Assembly: GCF_900106585.1 (NCBI RefSeq)
Contig: NZ_FNWH01000006.1
Span: 496,001 to 560,000, forward strand
DNA length: 64,000 nucleotides
From: Acidaminococcus timonensis
GTDB taxonomy: Bacteria; Bacillota; Negativicutes; Acidaminococcales; Acidaminococcaceae
Direction: 5' to 3'
Numbering within the stretch: position 1 is the stretch's first letter; each line of letters begins with the position of its first letter. A program made the translations under genes and the position numbers. Positions 38,614-62,621 of the stretch are shown here, one piece after another. The notes beneath the pieces are model-generated. The model searched no databases and was not told the DNA's origin. It saw nothing but the letters and a program-made list of their open reading frames with translations.

Positions 38614-38690
38614 GGCCCAGTAGTTCAGTTGGTTAGAATGCCGCCCTGTCACGGCGGAGATCGTCGGTTCGAGTCCGTCCTGGGTCGCCA
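38614..38690 (+). tRNA. tRNA-Asp (GTC)
   Basis: 77 nt with encoded CCA. The acceptor GGCCCAG pairs with CTGGGTC; the anticodon loop CTGTCAC, between CCGCC and GGCGG stems, gives GTC. The T-loop GGTTCGAGTCC is standard. Confidence 0.96.
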
Positions 38691-38692
38691 AT

Positions 38693-38767
38693 GCGGAAGT
38701 AGCTCAGTGGTAGAGCATCACCTTGCCAAGGTGGGGGTCGCGAGTTCGAATCTCGTTTTCCGCTCCA
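38693..38767 (+). tRNA. tRNA-Gly (GCC)
   Basis: 75 nt with encoded CCA. The acceptor GCGGAAG pairs with TTTCCGC in a near-perfect stem; anticodon GCC lies between CACCT and AGGTG. T-loop GAGTTCGAATCTC. Confidence 0.96.
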
Positions 38768-38768
38768 T

Positions 38769-38842
38769 AGGAGTATAGTTCAATGGTAGAGCAACGGTCT
38801 CCAAAACCGTCGATCTGGGTTCGAATCCTAGTACTCCTGCCA
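38769..38842 (+). tRNA. tRNA-Trp (CCA)
   Basis: 74 nt with encoded GCCA end. The acceptor AGGAGTA pairs with TACTCCT; anticodon CCA lies between CGGTT-type stem arms (ACGGT/ACCGT). T-loop GGGTTCGAATCCT. It is the last core gene before the mobile region. Confidence 0.96.
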
Positions 38843-44153: not shown

Positions 44154-47100
44154 ATGGAAAATTACGATAATATGCTCACATTGGAAAATCATTTGGCCTC
44201 TTTTCGTGATAGAGGAGAAATCTATAGAGAACTTTACAACAATTGGCTGGTCGAAAAACGGGATATTGCCAATGTGCTTAAAAATATCGTACTTTGTTTT
44301 CCCCATTATAGCCTTCATGATGCTTCCCATTCGGATACAGTCTTGATGCGCATGGAACAGCTTCTGGGAGAAAAGAGAATTGCCCAAATTGGTGCCACTG
44401 AAACTTGGCTGCTGCTCATGAGTGCATATACGCATGATTTGGGGATGCTGATTCAAGAGGACGAATTGGTAAAAATATGGGATTCTGAACCGTTCCAATC
44501 TTATTTAAAGAAAATCGACGACTCTTCTGATTTAAAAGAATATGCACGAATCGTCCGGAAGAAAGATTTTGAGAAGCGTTCTAAAAACTGGCCTGTGCAA
44601 GTGAAATGGGCTGTCACTGTTCTTTCAGCAGATTATTTCCGGAGAAGTCATGCCCAAAGAAGCTCTGATTTAATCAGAAACCAGCTAGAAGGGATTTCCC
44701 CTTTTAAACTGAATCTAAGCGCAAATGGATTCATTCAAGAACGGTTTATTTATTTGCTGAGCAAATTTGCAGAACTTCATGGCGCACCTTTCGATGATGT
44801 TTTAAAGTTGGATAAAGTTGCTTCAGGTATGGGCGGTTCAGACGATTTGATCTATCCTCGTCGAGTTGCTGCTTTATTACGGTTGGCCGATTTGTTGGAT
44901 ATGGATAATGGCCGGTTTGATGAAAATGCATATCCCATCAATGGAAAGGTTCCAGAGACCACACGTGCACACCAAAGAAAGCACAGCTCTCTCAGACATT
45001 TTCTGGTCATACCAGAACGAATCGAAATTGAATTGGACTGTCCAGATGAAAATTCCTTCCAGGCAGCTAGCTCCTGGGTTGGATGGATCAAAGATGAAAT
45101 TAGGGAAATATCTGAGCATTGGACAAATATCATGCCTGATAATTATGGTTCTGCTCCAATCTTGGAAAATCCGAGAATTTTCTTGAATGGTCAAAAATTG
45201 GAAGGGGATACCCTTGCCAGCTTTAAAGTCGATAACGACTCAATTTTCGAGGTTTTTGAAGGCGCCAATATTTATAAAAATAGGTTCTCATGCATTCGTG
45301 AACTGATTCAAAATGCTCTGGATGCAACGAAACTCAGATTCTGGAATTTACTCCAGCATCATGACATTTGTGATTCTTTGGAATTAGAAAATATTGATAA
45401 GATTACACCTTACGATATTCCTTTCGCTGACTATAATCGTTTTCCAATTACTGTTGAAGTTATTTATAATCAGGAAAAAGAGGAAAGAAATTCCTATATT
45501 GAGATTTTCGTAAAGGATCATGGGACAGGAATTACTGATAAACGATTGAAACAAATGATGAAAATTGGGCAGAGTGAGCATATTCTAAAAAGTAACCTTA
45601 CCGTTGATACCATGCCTAAATGGTTACAGCCTACTGGAGCATTTGGATTAGGACTTCAATCAGTTTTTCAGGTAACGGATAAATTAGAGTGTGAAACCCA
45701 ACCGGAAAGAGAAAACGGGAAAAAAGTAACATTTAGGTCCCATCGCGATAGCGGGAGAATATCTTATATCAATCTGGAAGATGATAGTAAACTTCCTGTT
45801 GGTACGACGTTTCATTTTTGTATATCATCAGAGAATATGCAAATCCAAAAATTCAATTTGGGTGGGAATTTTGACTCTCATTATATGGAATTGGATCCGT
45901 TTTCAACTGATTTTAAAAATGAGAAAGAAGCTCTGGTCCTGTTCTATATTATTGATTGCCTGGACGATGAAATCGGTAATCCTATATTTCCCATCCAAGT
46001 GTCATATTATTTTAAGACGGAAAAGGGAAGACGGAAGATTTGTGAAAGAAATTATGGCATTTTAAATAACTCCGCTTTACAGAAGGAACAGGAGGAATCT
46101 GATATCGTTTATTACCGGGGAAAAGATAAATCTTGGTTTAATGCGTATGATATTACGAATAATATAAGTTTCACAATTAGAGACGATCTAAGTGGAAAAC
46201 GTCGAAAAGGGATAGCTCTAACTTTTAAGGGGATGTCTGTAGATTCCCATTACTTGACTGCTAGTAATTTTTACTTAGATAAATTGTATGGATGCATCGA
46301 CTTTTTAGGATTTCCAACGAGGGAATATCTTTCTCTAAATCGAGCTGAAATACGTAGAAATAAGAAACAAGAAACCTTTAATATAGTTTATAAAGATATA
46401 AAGTGTATTTTGGAATATAAAATAAAAGAGATTATCGAAAATAAAAGATCAGAGTTGTCTTCAGGTGAGGCAAGCTTTTATGCACTGTTTTTACCATTAA
46501 TTGAAGACTTTAAAGCAGAGAAGGGGAAAATGATTTCTTCTCTTGAGAAAATCTTACTCCCGTTGATTAAAACAGAGCAAATACTATTTACAAGAGAGAA
46601 TGAACGTTGGAATGAAAAAGCAGAACTGCTAAGTAAGAGTTTAAAAATGATTTGGAACAAAGATGTTTTTTATGTCTATTCGGCTGAACGAACGTGGAAT
46701 GGCAGTATGGTAAAACCTCCTTTGAAAATAATTGATAAACTTTATAATCAAATGAATCAAGACTCGGAGCCAAAAAGGATATGCATTTATCCTCAAAATG
46801 CAATTCAATCTTGGTTGAACGTGGGAGATGTAAAAGTCCTTGAAATTGCTTCAGATGGAAAAGAACCCAATGAGGTGAAATTACAACGATGTGTCTTCGA
46901 GGGAAATGAAAAGATACTTCCGGAATTGGACACCCATACAACAGAAGAAATCTTGCAGATTTCTTTGCAGCAGTCTCGAATTGTAACCATTGCGTGTAAT
47001 GCATATCCACATCTAGCATTGGATAGAGAAAAAGATCTGACAACTTTATATTATATTCACAGATACTTTAATTCCTGGTTTGATGTGGGGCGTAATACCT

Positions 47101-47339
47101 TTGCGTGGGTCGTATCCCCTTTTAGCAAGGAAGACATTGAGAAATTGAAACAAGAAACAGTAGATTTTGGTAAGTTCTGGAATCAAATCAAGGAAAGGGA
47201 AGATTTTCAAAATCTTGTGGATTATGTATATGAGCATCGACTTGATGATAAGGGAACTAAGGAAGATATAATCAAAGATTACAAAAAATGGGTTCAGGAA
47301 GCGGTTTGTATGAGCAATAAGGGACATGAGAATAAGTAG
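44154..47339 (+). CDS. large HD-domain + HSP90/GHKL-type ATPase fusion, candidate defence protein
   Basis: 1061 residues; GGAGGTAGAAA precedes the ATG. An N-terminal HD phosphohydrolase-like domain shows H55-D56, H59/D61 (SLHDASHSD), H94-D95 (AYTHDLGML), and D246/D249 (LLRLADLLDMD). A GHKL (HSP90/MORC-like) ATPase follows: N-box RELIQNALDA (E383, N387), G1 DHGTGI (D455) and G2 GAFGLGLQSVF (495-505). About 450 further residues lack a fold I recognise, apart from helical repeats. HD plus HSP90-like ATPase combinations are known to me as predicted conflict-system proteins. It stands alone in AT-rich DNA between phage-like debris and an RT gene and has its own terminator. The substrate is unknown. 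Confidence 0.8.
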   Translation: MENYDNMLTLENHLASFRDRGEIYRELYNNWLVEKRDIANVLKNIVLCFPHYSLHDASHSDTVLMRMEQLLGEKRIAQIGATETWLLLMSAYTHDLGMLIQEDELVKIWDSEPFQSYLKKIDDSSDLKEYARIVRKKDFEKRSKNWPVQVKWAVTVLSADYFRRSHAQRSSDLIRNQLEGISPFKLNLSANGFIQERFIYLLSKFAELHGAPFDDVLKLDKVASGMGGSDDLIYPRRVAALLRLADLLDMDNGRFDENAYPINGKVPETTRAHQRKHSSLRHFLVIPERIEIELDCPDENSFQAASSWVGWIKDEIREISEHWTNIMPDNYGSAPILENPRIFLNGQKLEGDTLASFKVDNDSIFEVFEGANIYKNRFSCIRELIQNALDATKLRFWNLLQHHDICDSLELENIDKITPYDIPFADYNRFPITVEVIYNQEKEERNSYIEIFVKDHGTGITDKRLKQMMKIGQSEHILKSNLTVDTMPKWLQPTGAFGLGLQSVFQVTDKLECETQPERENGKKVTFRSHRDSGRISYINLEDDSKLPVGTTFHFCISSENMQIQKFNLGGNFDSHYMELDPFSTDFKNEKEALVLFYIIDCLDDEIGNPIFPIQVSYYFKTEKGRRKICERNYGILNNSALQKEQEESDIVYYRGKDKSWFNAYDITNNISFTIRDDLSGKRRKGIALTFKGMSVDSHYLTASNFYLDKLYGCIDFLGFPTREYLSLNRAEIRRNKKQETFNIVYKDIKCILEYKIKEIIENKRSELSSGEASFYALFLPLIEDFKAEKGKMISSLEKILLPLIKTEQILFTRENERWNEKAELLSKSLKMIWNKDVFYVYSAERTWNGSMVKPPLKIIDKLYNQMNQDSEPKRICIYPQNAIQSWLNVGDVKVLEIASDGKEPNEVKLQRCVFEGNEKILPELDTHTTEEILQISLQQSRIVTIACNAYPHLALDREKDLTTLYYIHRYFNSWFDVGRNTFAWVVSPFSKEDIEKLKQETVDFGKFWNQIKEREDFQNLVDYVYEHRLDDKGTKEDIIKDYKKWVQEAVCMSNKGHENK

Positions 47340-48456: not shown

Positions 48457-48845
48457 TTGACATTATCATCATAAACCTTTATGATGTACGTAAGGAATTT
48501 TCATCAATCTTGATGAACGATTCCAGGACGGTATTCTATAGGGGTGCCGGAGGATTTTATCAAAGTCAAGACCTCCTTCACGATAGCGATGGTTTGGTTT
48601 GACGCAGACAAAGAATCACGTGATTCTTTGTCTGCTGGTTCATTGCCAAGACAGAACTGAATGATGAGCGGTACGACTTGCATCAGCATCTGAAGGATGC
48701 CGGTGGATGATGTCCAGCCTGTGTGTGATTCTATCATACCACAGGAACTCATGCTTCATTAGGGTAGGGGCCTTAAGGCTCAGTTAAATTGTATAGACCC
48801 GCCAATCGTTGACAAATCTACCCGTTGAGATTGGCGGGCTTTTCA
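48457..48845 (+). ncRNA. candidate structured noncoding RNA upstream of the reverse transcriptase
   Basis: A strong promoter stands in noncoding DNA: TTGACA (48457-48462), 17 bp, TATGAT (48480-48485), so transcription should begin near 48492. The unit contains a 32-bp perfect palindrome (48604-48635) and ends in a stem CCCGCCAATC (48798-48807)/GATTGGCGGG (48829-48838) followed by CTTTTC. The RT gene starts 18 bp later with its own ribosome-binding site. Defence RTs of the DRT2 and DRT9 types and retrons carry an ncRNA upstream of the RT. The ~350-nt RNA is inferred, not observed. Confidence 0.6.
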
Positions 48846-48862
48846 TATATAGGGAGTATTTC

Positions 48863-50275
48863 ATGGATTCAGGAAGCAAAGAAGCGATAAGAAAACGAAT
48901 CGAAGATAAAGCAAGCATGTATGTCCATTTTGATTATCGAAGCTGTCTCACAGATTCTGTCCTGAAATATATCACAAATCCTGAGAAGGTTAGGACACAT
49001 GGCTTCTATCCTTTTCTTCACTTTATTATTGAAGAAAATAAAATAAAGAAAGTTGCAGGTGGATTTTCTCCCAAAAATAAAAAACGGGATATCATGTATG
49101 CGGATCATTTGGATTCCTGGATTTATCGCTATTATGGTGAAAAGCTGAATACTGCGTATAATGAGTTTGTGGCGAGTTGTGGAATTTCCAAGATCTCCAT
49201 TGCTTACAGGAATTGTATGAGAGGTCAGTCGAATATTGAGTTTGCAGAAGAAGCGTTTGCCTTTTTGATTCATCATGCTCCTTGTTACGTCATTATCGGT
49301 GATTTTACCCATTTTTTTGATTATATTGATCATACCTATTTAAAAAAGCAGCTGTGTCAAGTCCTTAAAGAAAAACGACTATCAGATGATTTTTTCAAGG
49401 TGTACCAGGCTGTTACCCAATATAGTTATGTGGAATATGACGCTATTCTAAAATACAAAGGTATGACCAGAAGGCAGCTTTCTCATGCACCAATTATTCT
49501 GACAAAAGACGAATTTCGTATCCTGAGCCGTAGAAAAAGGGGAGATAAAAATGACGAGTTCATTATCAAGAAAAATCACAGACCATATGGTATCCCACAG
49601 GGGTCACCCTTAAGTGGAGTCCTGGCCAATATTTATATGGTTGAATACGACCAGCAGATTGCTCAACAAGTCGCCAAATACGGTGGCTATTATCGCAGAT
49701 ATTCTGATGATTTTATGATTCTTCTTCCCTGTAAAGATATGTCAGAAGGTCAATGGAATCAATTCTTAAACAATCTAAAAGAAATTTTTGTACAGAAAAG
49801 CAACTGCAGTAATAAAAATCTTGTAAAACTCTCTCCTGAAAAGACGCAAAAATATCTTTTAACTGAGCAACGTCAAATCCAAAACTTATCAGACCCAGAA
49901 AAGAAGAACAATGTCATTAATTTCCTGGGCTTTTCTTATGACGGACATAGGATTACCGTGAGAGATAAGACTGTTGCAAGGTATTACCGTCGTCTTTACC
50001 AAAAAATCGGTACTATAGAGAGAAACGGGGGATACATTAACGGTAAACGGATCAGCTGTCGTAACCTGTATCAAAATTATACAAATAAGGGCATTTTAAA
50101 AAAGGGGAAAAACGGGAAAAAACACGGCAACTTTATCCATTATGCTTTCCGTGCTGAACGGATTTTTAATCGAAGACTCAAAGATTTGAATCATACGGGT
50201 ATCTTGCGTCAAAGACATTTGAGAAAAATTCGGAGAAAGTTAGATAAAATTTTTAGACGGTTAGTTGTAAAATGA
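48863..50275 (+). CDS. reverse transcriptase, candidate antiviral (UG/DRT-like) RT
   Basis: 470 residues from the ATG at 48863 (AGGGAG at 48851-48856); the earlier TTG at 48809 lies inside the hairpin. RT motifs: motif A IIGDFTHFFDYIDH (D147, residues 144-157), RPYGIPQGSPLSGVLANIYM (240-259), the YSDD catalytic box (280-283) and FLGF (354-357). N-terminal RDIMYADHLDSWIYRYYG and AYRNCMRGQSNIEFAEEAF precede motif A. A basic thumb-like C-terminus (FRAERIFNRRLKDLN, RQRHLRKIRRKLDKIF) follows. No maturase or endonuclease domain and no diversity-generating-retroelement parts are seen. The last five codons and stop lie in an IS30-type end, so the native C-terminus may be altered. The exact class is undetermined. 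Confidence 0.82.
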   Translation: MDSGSKEAIRKRIEDKASMYVHFDYRSCLTDSVLKYITNPEKVRTHGFYPFLHFIIEENKIKKVAGGFSPKNKKRDIMYADHLDSWIYRYYGEKLNTAYNEFVASCGISKISIAYRNCMRGQSNIEFAEEAFAFLIHHAPCYVIIGDFTHFFDYIDHTYLKKQLCQVLKEKRLSDDFFKVYQAVTQYSYVEYDAILKYKGMTRRQLSHAPIILTKDEFRILSRRKRGDKNDEFIIKKNHRPYGIPQGSPLSGVLANIYMVEYDQQIAQQVAKYGGYYRRYSDDFMILLPCKDMSEGQWNQFLNNLKEIFVQKSNCSNKNLVKLSPEKTQKYLLTEQRQIQNLSDPEKKNNVINFLGFSYDGHRITVRDKTVARYYRRLYQKIGTIERNGGYINGKRISCRNLYQNYTNKGILKKGKNGKKHGNFIHYAFRAERIFNRRLKDLNHTGILRQRHLRKIRRKLDKIFRRLVVK

Positions 50276-50722
50276 ATTTGAACAGTTAATCAAAAAACAA
50301 AAATCCATAGTGAAGCTTCATGTTAAAATGGTTTTGCGAGAAATCATCAACAAAGGAGCAATCACTATGGATCACATCCATTCTAACACAATTGAGGACG
50401 TACGTATACCCGGCCGCCATCTTTCTTAGGAGGAACGTGGCATAATTCAGGCTCTGTACCGTTAGGGGATTTCCCTTCGCACACGACTCAAACGCCACAA
50501 TGGCTTTTGCTGAGGGCTTTCACCCATCCAAAGGGTATGCCCATAGAGCGGTTCTCTGATGAGGATATCCTGAAAAATATGGCAGATGCGCTGAACCAGC
50601 GCCCACGTCGTGTTTTGGGCTACCATACGCCGTCAGAGCTATTTGATGCATTCCTCGATGAAGTTTATGCTATTGAGTGTGTTTCTTGACTATAGTTGTT
50701 CAAATTTAACTTGCAATTTACC
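50259..50722 (+). mobile_element. internally deleted IS30-type element, copy 1
   Basis: 464 bp between related ends GGTTAGTTGTAAAATGAATT (50259) and ...AACTTGCAATTTACC (50722). The N-terminal transposase remnant begins at 50367 (MDHIHSNTIEDVRIPGRHLS, stop, EERGIIQALYR); the C-terminal remnant reads PKGMPIERFSDEDILKNMAD and LNQRPRRVLGYHTPSELF, the IS30 family ending. The middle (DDE core) is gone. The same deletion joint is present in the inverted copy at 59605, so this is a non-autonomous derivative that moved as such. Confidence 0.82.
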
Positions 50723-59604: not shown

Positions 59605-60066
59605 GGTAAATTGCAAGTTGAATTTGAACAACTATAATCAAGAAATACACTCAATAGCATAAACTTCATCGAGGAATGCATCAAATAGCTCTGACGGCGT
59701 ATGGTAGCCCAAAATACGCCGTGGGAGCTGTTTCTGCATATCTGTCCATGTTTTCAGAATATTCTCATCAGAGAACCGCTCTCTGGACATGCCCTTTGGG
59801 ATGAAATCCCTCAGCAAAATCCATTGTGGCGTTTGAGTCGTGTGCGAAGGGAAATCCCCTAGCGGTACAGAGCTTGAATCATGTCACGTTCTTCCAAAGA
59901 AAGATGACGGCCGGGTATACGTACGTCTTCAATTGTGTTAGAATGGATGTGATCCATAGAGATTGCTCCTTTGTTGATGATTTTTCGCAAAACCATTTTA
60001 ACATGAAGCTTCGCTATGGATTTTTGCTTTTTGATTACCTGTTCAAATTCATTTTACAACTAACTA
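59605..60066 (-). mobile_element. internally deleted IS30-type element, copy 2 (inverted)
   Basis: About 462 bp, reverse orientation relative to 50259-50722. Ends GGTAAATTGCAAGTTGAATT (59605) and ...TTTTACAACTAAC (~60066). On the minus strand it carries the same two transposase remnants with the same internal deletion joint. It diverges from copy 1 by many single-base changes, so the copies are not from a very recent duplication. It lies between wzx and the KAP-like NTPase. Confidence 0.8.
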
Positions 60067-60101
60067 TTTTCTCAAATATGGTTAAAAAGAGGAACCTTAA
60101 A

Positions 60102-62621
60102 ATGAAATGGCAGACGATACAAAGAACCTTGATAATTGCAATCTTTGCTTGTGTTATTTTCATCTTGTTCAGTGAACAAATCGTAAAGCAGCAGATTGCC
60201 ATTTCCCTGTTGAATGCGCTCTTTGCCTTTTTCTGGTTATGGTATGGTAGGTCCAGGAATGCTGATAAGATCCTAAAGAATATTTACTTGGGGTTGGGAG
60301 AATGCTTTATCATTTGGCATTCTTTGGAACCTGCCAGAATGAAATTCTTATATTTCATAATAAATTTAGTAGTCCTATTGATTTGTTATTGCATATGGAA
60401 ATATAAGAATCGTAATAATGCACGGACTTTGGAAGAAAACGAGAAACACCTGCTCTTTCCAGAACATCAGGCTGATTTGGAAAGAATTAGGATTTTGATT
60501 AAAGATGACAACATATTGGGAGTTCAGTCTCCTTATGGAGAAGGAAAATCTTTTGTGGTTGATCGGTTGTGTACTGATCTCATGGAAAATGAAAAGTGGG
60601 ATGTGATTCATATTGAATCGTTGGCGTACAGTTATAAAGATTTTGATAAAGTACTCATCCAAAAAATTTCCCAGGTCTTGAAAGAAAACCATATTTACTC
60701 TTTTTATGCAACAGAATTGCTTCAGTGTATCAAAGAAACTTTGTGGGGCAAGTTGTCATTGCCACAACTGTTCCATTCTTCTGTTGAAGCGTCTTCTACT
60801 ATTGTAGGACTCAGAGAGGACCTGCTCCAATTGGAAAAGCCGGTTCTGATTGTTTTTGAAGATATTGAGCGGGTACATGACTCTGAATATGTGAAAAGAT
60901 TGTTTGCCATTGCAGAAAGATTATGCAGTAACAAGGCAAAATTTATATTGGAATATGATGCATCTGTGTTGAATGGACAAGGAATTGATTTTCAGTTCAG
61001 AGAAAAGTATCTTCCTTTTGAAGTGAATATAAGTGATATCCCTTACAGAAAACTGATTTGCTATTTATGGGATGAGACCGAAAAAGCAGAATATACGGAT
61101 TTGAAGAGATGGGAGATTGAAGATTATCGAAAAGCAGCATTACTTAGTAGTTATGGTCCTCTTTTTCTTGCATTGCAGCAAAGCTATGAAGAAATAGAGC
61201 TGGAAAAGATAAAAGCTGGTAATTTTTCTGTACGAAGGGTTCGGAATTATTTAATAGAGTCCAAGTTATATTTATCTAAAAAGGAAGGGCTGTCTGAGGA
61301 AGCAAAGAGAATCATTTTGAAAGTTCTCTATTTGAAATTTTTCCATCATAACATGTTTGAAAAATTAAAGCCTGGAAAGTCGTTGGAAGAAGTTTATCTG
61401 TTTAAAAATAAAGGTGATGATAAGACCCTGTTTGAATTTTATTCTCATGTTTTAAACAGCAAAAATCCGAAAGCTACATTTAAAGAATTAATGAAGAATG
61501 GGCAAAATCATGATTCGTATTATTTATTCTGCTTTCTTGGATATGAAGGATATGATTACGTCAAAAAAATAGAAAATGAGAAAAAAAGTACAGAACCATC
61601 AAAATTAGATTATACGCAGCATCTGCAGAATCAGGAGAAGAGGGAACGAATCAATCGCATTATTTGGAACTTACTCATGAACGGAGAATCAGAGTACAGC
61701 GATCAGCAACTGTTCATGAAGCGATTTGTGAATGAAGTACTTGAGGCTGGAAACGAAGAAATGCAACTGACAGCATGGGGAAGATTGCAAAATCAGTCAC
61801 TGAATGAAAAAATATATAAAAACAATAATGGTATTTTCTATTTTGGAATCAATTATTTTGTGTCGCTGGCACAAGGAATGTATGTTTGTGGTTATCAAGA
61901 AAAATGGCCAGACTTTTTTCAGTTTTACAAGAGAATCCAAAAAGAGATTGTTGTTGATGTGGATTTTGTTAAGATGCTTTCATTTGTAGACATAAAGAGT
62001 AAAGATACCTTGCTTATTTCTGCAATGGATTTTTTTAATCAAGGGAAGCTTATTGGAAACCTAAACCAGAAACAAGAGTATTATCATTTTCTATATGAAT
62101 ATATTGATTGCATCGGACGTTGGGAGTTTATTCATTCTCTGGCACCATTGGAACTTGAGAATTGGAGAGTAATCAGCGGGTTTACTTTAACGAATGAACG
62201 GTTGGTTAAAATATTAAAACAACTATGGGAGGATACAAACGATGAATTGAGAAAGAAAAATAATAAAAGGTTGATTAAAGAATTACAGATCATTCAGAAG
62301 TTTATTCAAAAAAATATTGAGCTAATAGAAATGCAGAATCCATATTCAATAGATAGACCAAGCGTTGAGATGAAGGCAAAAACAATTCATACCCATCAAA
62401 AAGAAGTGGATATGATTTATGAAATGTTGAACCAGTATCCTGATAACCCACAAGCACTGGTTGAATGTGAGAAAATGATGGATGAATTTTATGAAGAGGG
62501 AAAGCTAACCATTTACGAACTGCGCTCTGCGCAACGTTCGGTGGCAAGAAAAAAGAAAATTACAATTAGGAATGTGAATGCTAATATAAAAGTGAGCCAT
62601 TTAAGATCTAAATGCTCATGA
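60102..62621 (+). CDS. membrane-anchored KAP-like P-loop NTPase, candidate defence protein
   Basis: 839 residues from the ATG at 60102 (AGAGGA at 60089-60094); longer in-frame starts fall inside the IS30 derivative. Three to four membrane spans lie in residues 8-99. The P-loop SPYGEGKSF is at about 143-151; Walker B LIVFEDIERVHD at about 249-260; AKFILEYDASVL follows as a sensor-like strand. The remainder (~550 residues) is helical and charged. This layout matches KAP/YobI-type NTPases, some linked to phage defence. The last ~14 codons lie in IS21-end repeats, so the native 3' end may be lost. Confidence 0.72.
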   Translation: MKWQTIQRTLIIAIFACVIFILFSEQIVKQQIAISLLNALFAFFWLWYGRSRNADKILKNIYLGLGECFIIWHSLEPARMKFLYFIINLVVLLICYCIWKYKNRNNARTLEENEKHLLFPEHQADLERIRILIKDDNILGVQSPYGEGKSFVVDRLCTDLMENEKWDVIHIESLAYSYKDFDKVLIQKISQVLKENHIYSFYATELLQCIKETLWGKLSLPQLFHSSVEASSTIVGLREDLLQLEKPVLIVFEDIERVHDSEYVKRLFAIAERLCSNKAKFILEYDASVLNGQGIDFQFREKYLPFEVNISDIPYRKLICYLWDETEKAEYTDLKRWEIEDYRKAALLSSYGPLFLALQQSYEEIELEKIKAGNFSVRRVRNYLIESKLYLSKKEGLSEEAKRIILKVLYLKFFHHNMFEKLKPGKSLEEVYLFKNKGDDKTLFEFYSHVLNSKNPKATFKELMKNGQNHDSYYLFCFLGYEGYDYVKKIENEKKSTEPSKLDYTQHLQNQEKRERINRIIWNLLMNGESEYSDQQLFMKRFVNEVLEAGNEEMQLTAWGRLQNQSLNEKIYKNNNGIFYFGINYFVSLAQGMYVCGYQEKWPDFFQFYKRIQKEIVVDVDFVKMLSFVDIKSKDTLLISAMDFFNQGKLIGNLNQKQEYYHFLYEYIDCIGRWEFIHSLAPLELENWRVISGFTLTNERLVKILKQLWEDTNDELRKKNNKRLIKELQIIQKFIQKNIELIEMQNPYSIDRPSVEMKAKTIHTHQKEVDMIYEMLNQYPDNPQALVECEKMMDEFYEEGKLTIYELRSAQRSVARKKKITIRNVNANIKVSHLRSKCS

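What the first reader, a model, noticed from the sequence alone, without database searches (positions are those of the whole stretch)
48457..50275. Reverse transcriptase with a promoter-to-terminator noncoding unit directly upstream
Seen: an RT with YSDD and GIPQGSPLSG motifs but no maturase, endonuclease or retroelement partners. It is preceded by ~350 bp of noncoding DNA bounded by TTGACA-17-TATGAT and by a CCCGCCAATC/GATTGGCGGG hairpin with T-run. Known: DRT2, DRT9 and retron systems keep an ncRNA just upstream of a defence RT. The region is a defence-like island beside IS elements. I could not place the RT in a known DRT class, so it may be a new or unassigned type.
Basis: partly seen in the sequence, partly recalled or inferred. 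Interest (0 to 1): 0.85.

Follow-up and report, generated by a model that had tools for sequence, protein, structure and literature searches.

The report
Divergent DRT2 phage-defence reverse transcriptase
A bacterial reverse transcriptase and the RNA encoded just in front of it look like a distant relative of the known DRT2 phage-defence system, in which the RNA is copied round and round into DNA to build a repeating toxic gene only during infection; the parts needed for that trick appear to be kept, with a different copying junction and a longer repeat.

Summary
In detail: an intact 470-aa RT (48863-50275, YSDD) follows a structured noncoding unit with its own promoter (48457-48485). The RT is not a new type. 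It is DRT2 (UG2) by HMM, PDB match, predicted fold and tree, though divergent (below NCBIfam's Drt2 cut-off; nearest relative 46-48% identical). The 'terminator' hairpin is the conserved 3' stem of the ncRNA; its loop forms a pseudoknot with 48762-48768, a pairing supported by covariation in 35 homologues. A covariance model built without the window finds the window at the right place. Choosing templates by promoter similarity alone, repeat length is divisible by 3 in 38 of 42 better-scoring deduplicated loci, all 38 open in frame, with a promoter rebuilt across the junction; on two E. coli drt2 loci the rule recovers the published ACA/117-nt arrangement. The window fits, less cleanly: 192-bp (64-codon) repeat, TTGACT-17-TATGAT, open frame, full Shine-Dalgarno. 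Differences from published systems: junction motif mostly ATT(G), not ACA, in this Bacillota clade (AT or AGGA in the window, unresolved), longer repeat, moved ribosome-binding site, and a perfect 32-nt palindrome in the template. RNA, cDNA and defence steps are inferred, not shown.

The parts
48457..48485 (+). promoter TTGACA-17-TATGAT, inferred to serve ncRNA and RT
   Evidence: unique exact match in the window; similar promoter seen upstream of several homologues by eye
48492..48846 (+). predicted ncRNA (ends approximate)
   Evidence: RNA fold z = -5.94; 3' part found by a covariance model built without the window
48494..48549 (+). two predicted 5' hairpins (5' handle region)
   Evidence: minimum-energy fold; a 5' hairpin seen in some homologues by eye
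48559..48750 (+). predicted reverse-transcription template, 192 nt (alternative 48551-48742, junction motif AGGA)
   Evidence: (L026); exact junction unresolved
48564..48569 (-). -35 half (TTGACT) of the promoter rebuilt across cDNA repeats
   Evidence: aligned with TTGACA of L026
48733..48738 (-). -10 half (TATGAT, extended TGG) of the rebuilt promoter
48571..48578 (-). Shine-Dalgarno AAGGAGGT in cDNA sense, before the -35
   Evidence: 8 of 8 match
48561..48752 (-). one predicted Neo repeat unit (64 codons)
   Evidence: open through the junction
48604..48635 (.). perfect 32-nt palindrome in the template
48762..48768 (+). 5' strand of the pseudoknot
   Evidence: helix covaries in homologues
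48817..48823 (+). 3' strand of the pseudoknot, in the loop of the scaffold stem
48863..50275 (+). DRT2-family reverse transcriptase, 470 aa, YSDD

Best explanation
A divergent DRT2 phage-defence system. Inferred working: the RT binds the pseudoknotted ncRNA made from the 48457 promoter; on phage infection it copies the 192-nt template antisense, jumps from the template's 5' end back to its 3' end by a short repeated motif, and so makes head-to-tail cDNA repeats. Once double-stranded, each junction joins a -35 (end of one repeat) to a -10 (start of the next) with 17 bp between them, giving an mRNA whose 64-codon frame has no stop. The repetitive, rather hydrophobic protein (Neo) then arrests the infected cell. 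Supported here by sequence: RT family, conserved RNA fold, template layout, junction promoter, open frame. Inferred from KpnDRT2 work: RNP formation, jumping, phage trigger, translation, toxicity.
For: RT family and tree. Conserved pseudoknot and stem with changes on both sides; window found by a model built without it, best hit in 64 kb, E = 7.6e-4. Promoter-only choice of template: 38 of 42 lengths divisible by 3 and 38 of 42 open at score >= 11.5; 46 and 44 of 60 at score >= 10 (binomial 1.7e-14 and 7.9e-12 for length). Positive control on two E. coli drt2 loci gives ACA and 117 nt, the published type. Window: 192 bp, TTGACT-17-TATGAT, open frame, same frame and repeat ends as homologues; nearest relative L026 also 192 and open. 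Hydrophobic frame. Shine-Dalgarno either after the -10 or before the -35 in 45 of 48 units.
Against: NCBIfam Drt2 score 336.5 is under the cut-off of 390. In the window the -35 / -10 pair ties with six others, two of the seven being divisible by 3 and open (192 and 198); homology to L026 chooses 192. Its junction identity is only AT, or AGGA at another place. The covariance match is weak (29.3 bits; other left-out loci reach 83.7). The window's frame is open in 6.5% of shuffles on its own. Substitutions between related templates show no clear third-position bias. 4 of 42 (score >= 11.5) and 14 of 60 (score >= 10) loci do not fit the length rule. No expression, cDNA or defence data.
Confidence: 0.78

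Rival explanations
1. DRT2 RT and ncRNA, but this copy is decaying or works without a Neo protein: the junction motif has eroded so that precise repeats no longer form, or the cDNA itself is the effector.
For: Weak junction motif and one-off -35 in the window; lower covariance score than most relatives that matched; no codon-position signal. Tang et al. suggest other mechanisms in divergent clades.
Against: RT frame and YSDD intact. Repeat length 192, open frame and full Shine-Dalgarno are kept, and L026, 46-48% identical in the RT, has the same length and an open frame with a different template sequence.
Confidence: 0.15
2. The minus-strand frame is an ordinary small antisense gene and the RT uses the RNA in some other way.
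For: An 82-aa ORF with ATG exists on the minus strand, 48504-48752.
Against: What the homologues share is a frame open through the repeat junction with fixed ends (LNYxII ... LTT) and lengths divisible by 3. Ordinary start and stop codons in homologues were not compared systematically.
Confidence: 0.03
3. A new, unassigned DRT or retron-like type.
For: NCBIfam cut-off not reached; RT only 29% identical to the solved DRT2 in the fold alignment.
Against: PADLOC Drt2 412 bits with the next family at 65; fold match DRT2 17 orders of magnitude ahead of DRT9; ncRNA and template layout of the DRT2 kind.
Confidence: 0.03

Closest known systems
Klebsiella pneumoniae DRT2 (KpnDRT2; Wilkinson et al. PMC12039810, Tang et al. 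PMC11100668; PDB 9c0i) and its E. coli relatives (L118, L119)
   Same: RT family and fold; lone RT with upstream ncRNA; pseudoknotted 3' scaffold; template read antisense; promoter rebuilt across repeats at 17 bp; repeat divisible by 3 and open.
   Different: Repeat 192 bp against the published 111-129; junction AT or AGGA (ATT(G) in most of the clade) instead of ACA; Shine-Dalgarno before the -35 and not after the -10; YSDD instead of YCDD; perfect 32-nt palindrome in the template.
DRT2-like loci of Bacillota (L026-L105; nearest L026, Dialister succinatiphilus)
   Same: 46-48% RT identity to L026, same 192-bp repeat, relocated Shine-Dalgarno, long perfect palindrome in the template.
   Different: Most others have ATT(G) junctions, repeats of 126-168 bp and no such palindrome.
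DRT9
   Same: Defence RT with an ncRNA; next-best fold family.
   Different: RT score 65 against 412 bits; DRT9 makes protein-primed poly-dA from its RNA (PMC12483538, seen as title and abstract start in the search listing).

Membership tests
DRT2 (UG2) | RT of the Drt2 sequence family | tested here: met
   PADLOC Drt2 E = 1e-123; PDB DRT2 E = 4.4e-49; fold E = 3.2e-28; but NCBIfam Drt2 336.5 bits is under its cut-off of 390
DRT2 (UG2) | single RT gene without added effector domain | tested here: met
   only RVT_1 found in the RT; neighbours scanned are not known partners
DRT2 (UG2) | structured ncRNA directly upstream with a pseudoknotted 3' scaffold | tested here: met
   transcription itself not testable here
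DRT2 (UG2) | concatenated antisense repeat divisible by 3 with an open frame | tested here: met
   192 bp, open; choice among seven tied promoter pairs rests on homology to L026
DRT2 (UG2) | -35 and -10 joined across the repeat junction at 17 bp | tested here: met
   TTGACT-17-TATGAT
DRT2 (UG2) | rolling-circle cDNA, phage-triggered double strand, toxic Neo, phage defence | not testable with these tools
   needs experiments
KpnDRT2-like subgroup (ACA type) | ACA at both template ends | tested here: not met
   AT or AGGA in the window; ACA recovered in E. coli L118 and L119 by the same rule
KpnDRT2-like subgroup (ACA type) | ribosome-binding site just after the -10 | tested here: not met
   none after the -10; AAGGAGGT before the -35
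Group II intron RT / DGR RT | RT closest to group II maturases or DGR RTs | tested here: not met
   group II maturase model 59.5 bits, cut-off 300; a DGR RT structure ranks 19th in the fold search, E = 8.7e-8
Retron | retron RT with msr/msd | tested here: not met
   best retron model 45.1 bits, cut-off 235; msr/msd layout itself not tested
DRT9 | RT of the Drt9 family | tested here: not met
   65.3 bits against 412 for Drt2

The most novel reading that the evidence does not exclude
The window and its Dialister relative are a mechanistic variant of DRT2: repeats are joined with hardly any junction identity (no ACA or ATTG), the repeat is half as long again, and a perfect 32-38-nt palindrome in the template makes the nascent cDNA fold back and prime its own second strand, a built-in route to the double-stranded toxic gene.
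Probability: 0.12. Interest if true: 0.65.

Novelty: new variant of a known kind. Interest (0 to 1): 0.5.

Why it matters
Tang et al. (PMC11100668) could predict ncRNAs in divergent DRT2 clades but found Neo hard to annotate there and suggested other mechanisms. Here a large Bacillota clade seems to keep the same gene-building logic with another junction motif. If true, the junction motif is free to change, which bears on how template jumping is specified, and promoter halves plus reading frame give a simple rule for finding hidden neo genes where ACA fails.

Tried and rejected
Intrinsic terminator for the 48798-48838 hairpin: rejected. Rfam: 4 matches in the window at gathering scores, none near the locus. 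Selection on Neo by codon position: no clear third-position excess. The first motif scan stopped at 190 bp and so missed the window's 192. Viral contigs: none by the single protein; 4 loci by the alignment, 31%, 28%, 25% and 44% identical, the last two over short stretches. Closer relatives in the window's own family: 2 of 59 genomes have such an RT, the window's included. Phylum sample: 4 of 398, own included. Alignment A3 was cut too short at its 3' end and not used further. Canonical plasmid drt2 loci under the rule: L113 fits (AGAT, 111, open); L114 gives 138 with motif TATGT, open with that motif but not at the fixed offset; L116 gives 145, not divisible by 3; L115 and L117 gave nothing clear. 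The covariance model did not find any of L113-L117, L111 or L112 at E <= 1.

Literature: searches. Read: PMC12039810 parts 1-3 of 10 plus passages; PMC11100668 parts 1-4 of 8 plus passages; PMC12596737 and PMC13213688 passages only; other papers only as search listings. I met no description of an ATT(G)-type DRT2 junction in these. The supplement of Tang et al. (fig. S6) and its journal version were not seen, so it may be in print there.

Full report
What is there. The window carries an intact 470-aa reverse transcriptase gene at 48863-50275 with IPQGSPLSG and YSDD, preceded by a single exact TTGACA-17-TATGAT promoter at 48457-48485 and about 355 noncoding bases that fold better than 100 of 100 shuffles (z = -5.94). 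No Rfam family matches near it. The genome has one copy. The host is probably of the family Acidaminococcaceae: G026, listed as same family, has a contig of the same length (50,109 bases) as the Phascolarctobacterium contig of L063; this is an inference. In that family 2 of 59 genomes, the window's included, hold such an RT; in a phylum sample 4 of 398, own included. Such patchy spread is usual for defence genes.

Which RT. PADLOC Drt2 412 bits, then Drt9 65. NCBIfam Drt2 336.5 bits, under its cut-off of 390; group II maturase 59.5. PDB DRT2 E = 4.4e-49. An AlphaFold2 model (7-row alignment, mean pLDDT 75) matches DRT2 9c0i at E = 3.2e-28, DRT9 next at 1.1e-11. A tree of 74 RTs (quick search, SH-aLRT only) puts the window with Dialister succinatiphilus L026 (support 99) in an 8-row clade (99) with L031, L033, L051, L060, L086 and L110; the annotated drt2 rows L113, L114 and L116 form another group. 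The program warned of long branches in the outgroup, so deep joins are unsure; no DRT9 or retron rows were in the tree.

The RNA. I compared upstream regions of 79 of the 80 loci (L082 has too little upstream DNA), three phage-record loci and the window, 83 in all. The 3' part is conserved. In 48 regions with a template candidate (window included) a script looked for a stem and a loop pairing and found a candidate in each; in L056 and L059 it picked a wrong stem. In the window the loop pairing beats 94% of loop shuffles, so it is weak on its own. On alignment A2 (35 loci with a clear promoter pair, window left out, L031's pair chosen by hand between two ties) the pseudoknot pairs in 99.5% of cells with both-side changes in 7 of 7 pairs (4 of 35 rows have gaps there), the scaffold stem in 95.2% with both-side changes in 10 of 12, the middle hairpin in 74.4%. 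All five structure measures exceed all 500 shuffles; slid versions pair at 32-48% of cells; the structure was drawn from one of the rows, which favours it on cells paired. A covariance model from A2 finds the window at 48733-48868 as best hit in 64 kb, 29.3 bits, E = 7.6e-4 (rough), next hit 0.79. Of 37 other sources not in A2, 11 matched just upstream of the RT at E below 0.01, some of them close kin of A2 rows; L113-L117, L111 and L112 did not match.

The template. In KpnDRT2 the template lies between two ACA motifs, repeats are divisible by 3, and -10 and -35 meet over the junction at 17 bp (PMC12039810; PMC11100668). I took the best -35 / -10 pair at 17-bp spacing, without asking for motif, length or frame. 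Of 83 regions 61 were kept (18 dropped as similar, 4 as too short). At score >= 11.5, 38 of 42 lengths are divisible by 3 and all 38 have an open frame; at >= 10, 46 of 60 and 44 of 60; one scored lower. Binomial against one third: 1.7e-14 and 7.9e-12; the rows are related, so these overstate. At one fixed offset 28 of the 42 have at least three identical bases at both template ends, mostly ATT(G). The same rule on two E. coli drt2 loci returns ACA and 117 nt with an open frame, as published. Other annotated drt2 loci vary: L113 AGAT and 111, open; L114 138, open only with its own motif; L116 145; L115 and L117 unclear. So ACA is not universal and the rule does not solve every group.

The window. 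Its pair TTGACT / TATGAT gives 192 bp and an open frame in the phase of the homologues, but ties with six other pairs; one of these (TTGATA, 198) is also open. L026 has a single best pair, TTGACA / TATACT, 192, open, and by-eye alignment of the two regions selects 192. Junction: AT at the place where homologues have ATTG, or AGGA eight bases earlier; both give the same promoter and length. The predicted repeat reads SSCGMIES...KEVLTLM, in the frame of the homologues' LNYVII...LTTI. This frame is open in 6.5% of shuffles of the window's unit. Mean GRAVY over the 48 units is 0.86 in this frame and -0.47 in the other two cDNA frames; for the window 0.27 against -0.77 and -0.42. A Shine-Dalgarno of 5 or more bases stands after the -10 in 36 of 48 units; of the 12 without it 9, the window among them with 8 of 8, have one before the -35, against 1 of the 36 (Fisher 1.2e-6, rows not independent; background 6% and 1%). 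These 48 units were chosen as open, so they do not test openness; one search does. Against: substitutions between related templates fall on the three codon positions without a clear third-position excess, so Neo is not visibly constrained beyond frame and hydrophobicity.

Palindrome. The template holds a perfect 32-nt palindrome (48604-48635). L026 has a perfect 38-nt one of different sequence; in the other 37 units examined the longest is 20; in 100 shuffles of the window's unit the longest is 14. A role in second-strand priming is a guess.

Verdict. A DRT2 system, distant from those studied, with the neo logic apparently kept and its junction motif, ribosome-binding site and repeat length changed. 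The steps from RNP to toxicity are inferred from KpnDRT2.

Noticed in passing
44154-47339 (+): 1061-aa protein with an HD-CE domain and a weaker HATPase/Hsp90-like match; no PADLOC family below E = 0.05. Could be an undescribed defence gene.
   Followed up: partly
59826-62621 (+): 931-aa protein with a weak KAP-family NTPase match, no PADLOC match, downstream of the polysaccharide-type gene cluster.
   Followed up: partly
38614-38842 (+): Three tRNA genes in a row (Asp, Gly, Trp) directly before ISL3 and IS21 transposase genes: a possible island edge.
   Followed up: no
50335-50690 (+): Broken frames after the RT that look like an IS30-type transposase remnant (recalled; Pfam found nothing in the 48-aa piece tested).
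   Followed up: partly
L113, L114, L116 (upstream of drt2): Annotated drt2 loci outside the Klebsiella/E. coli type show other junction motifs (AGAT, TATGT, unclear), so the junction motif seems to vary across DRT2.
   Followed up: partly
L110, L111, L112: DRT2-type RTs with template-like upstream regions lie in three phage records, one of a Clostridioides phage.
   Followed up: partly
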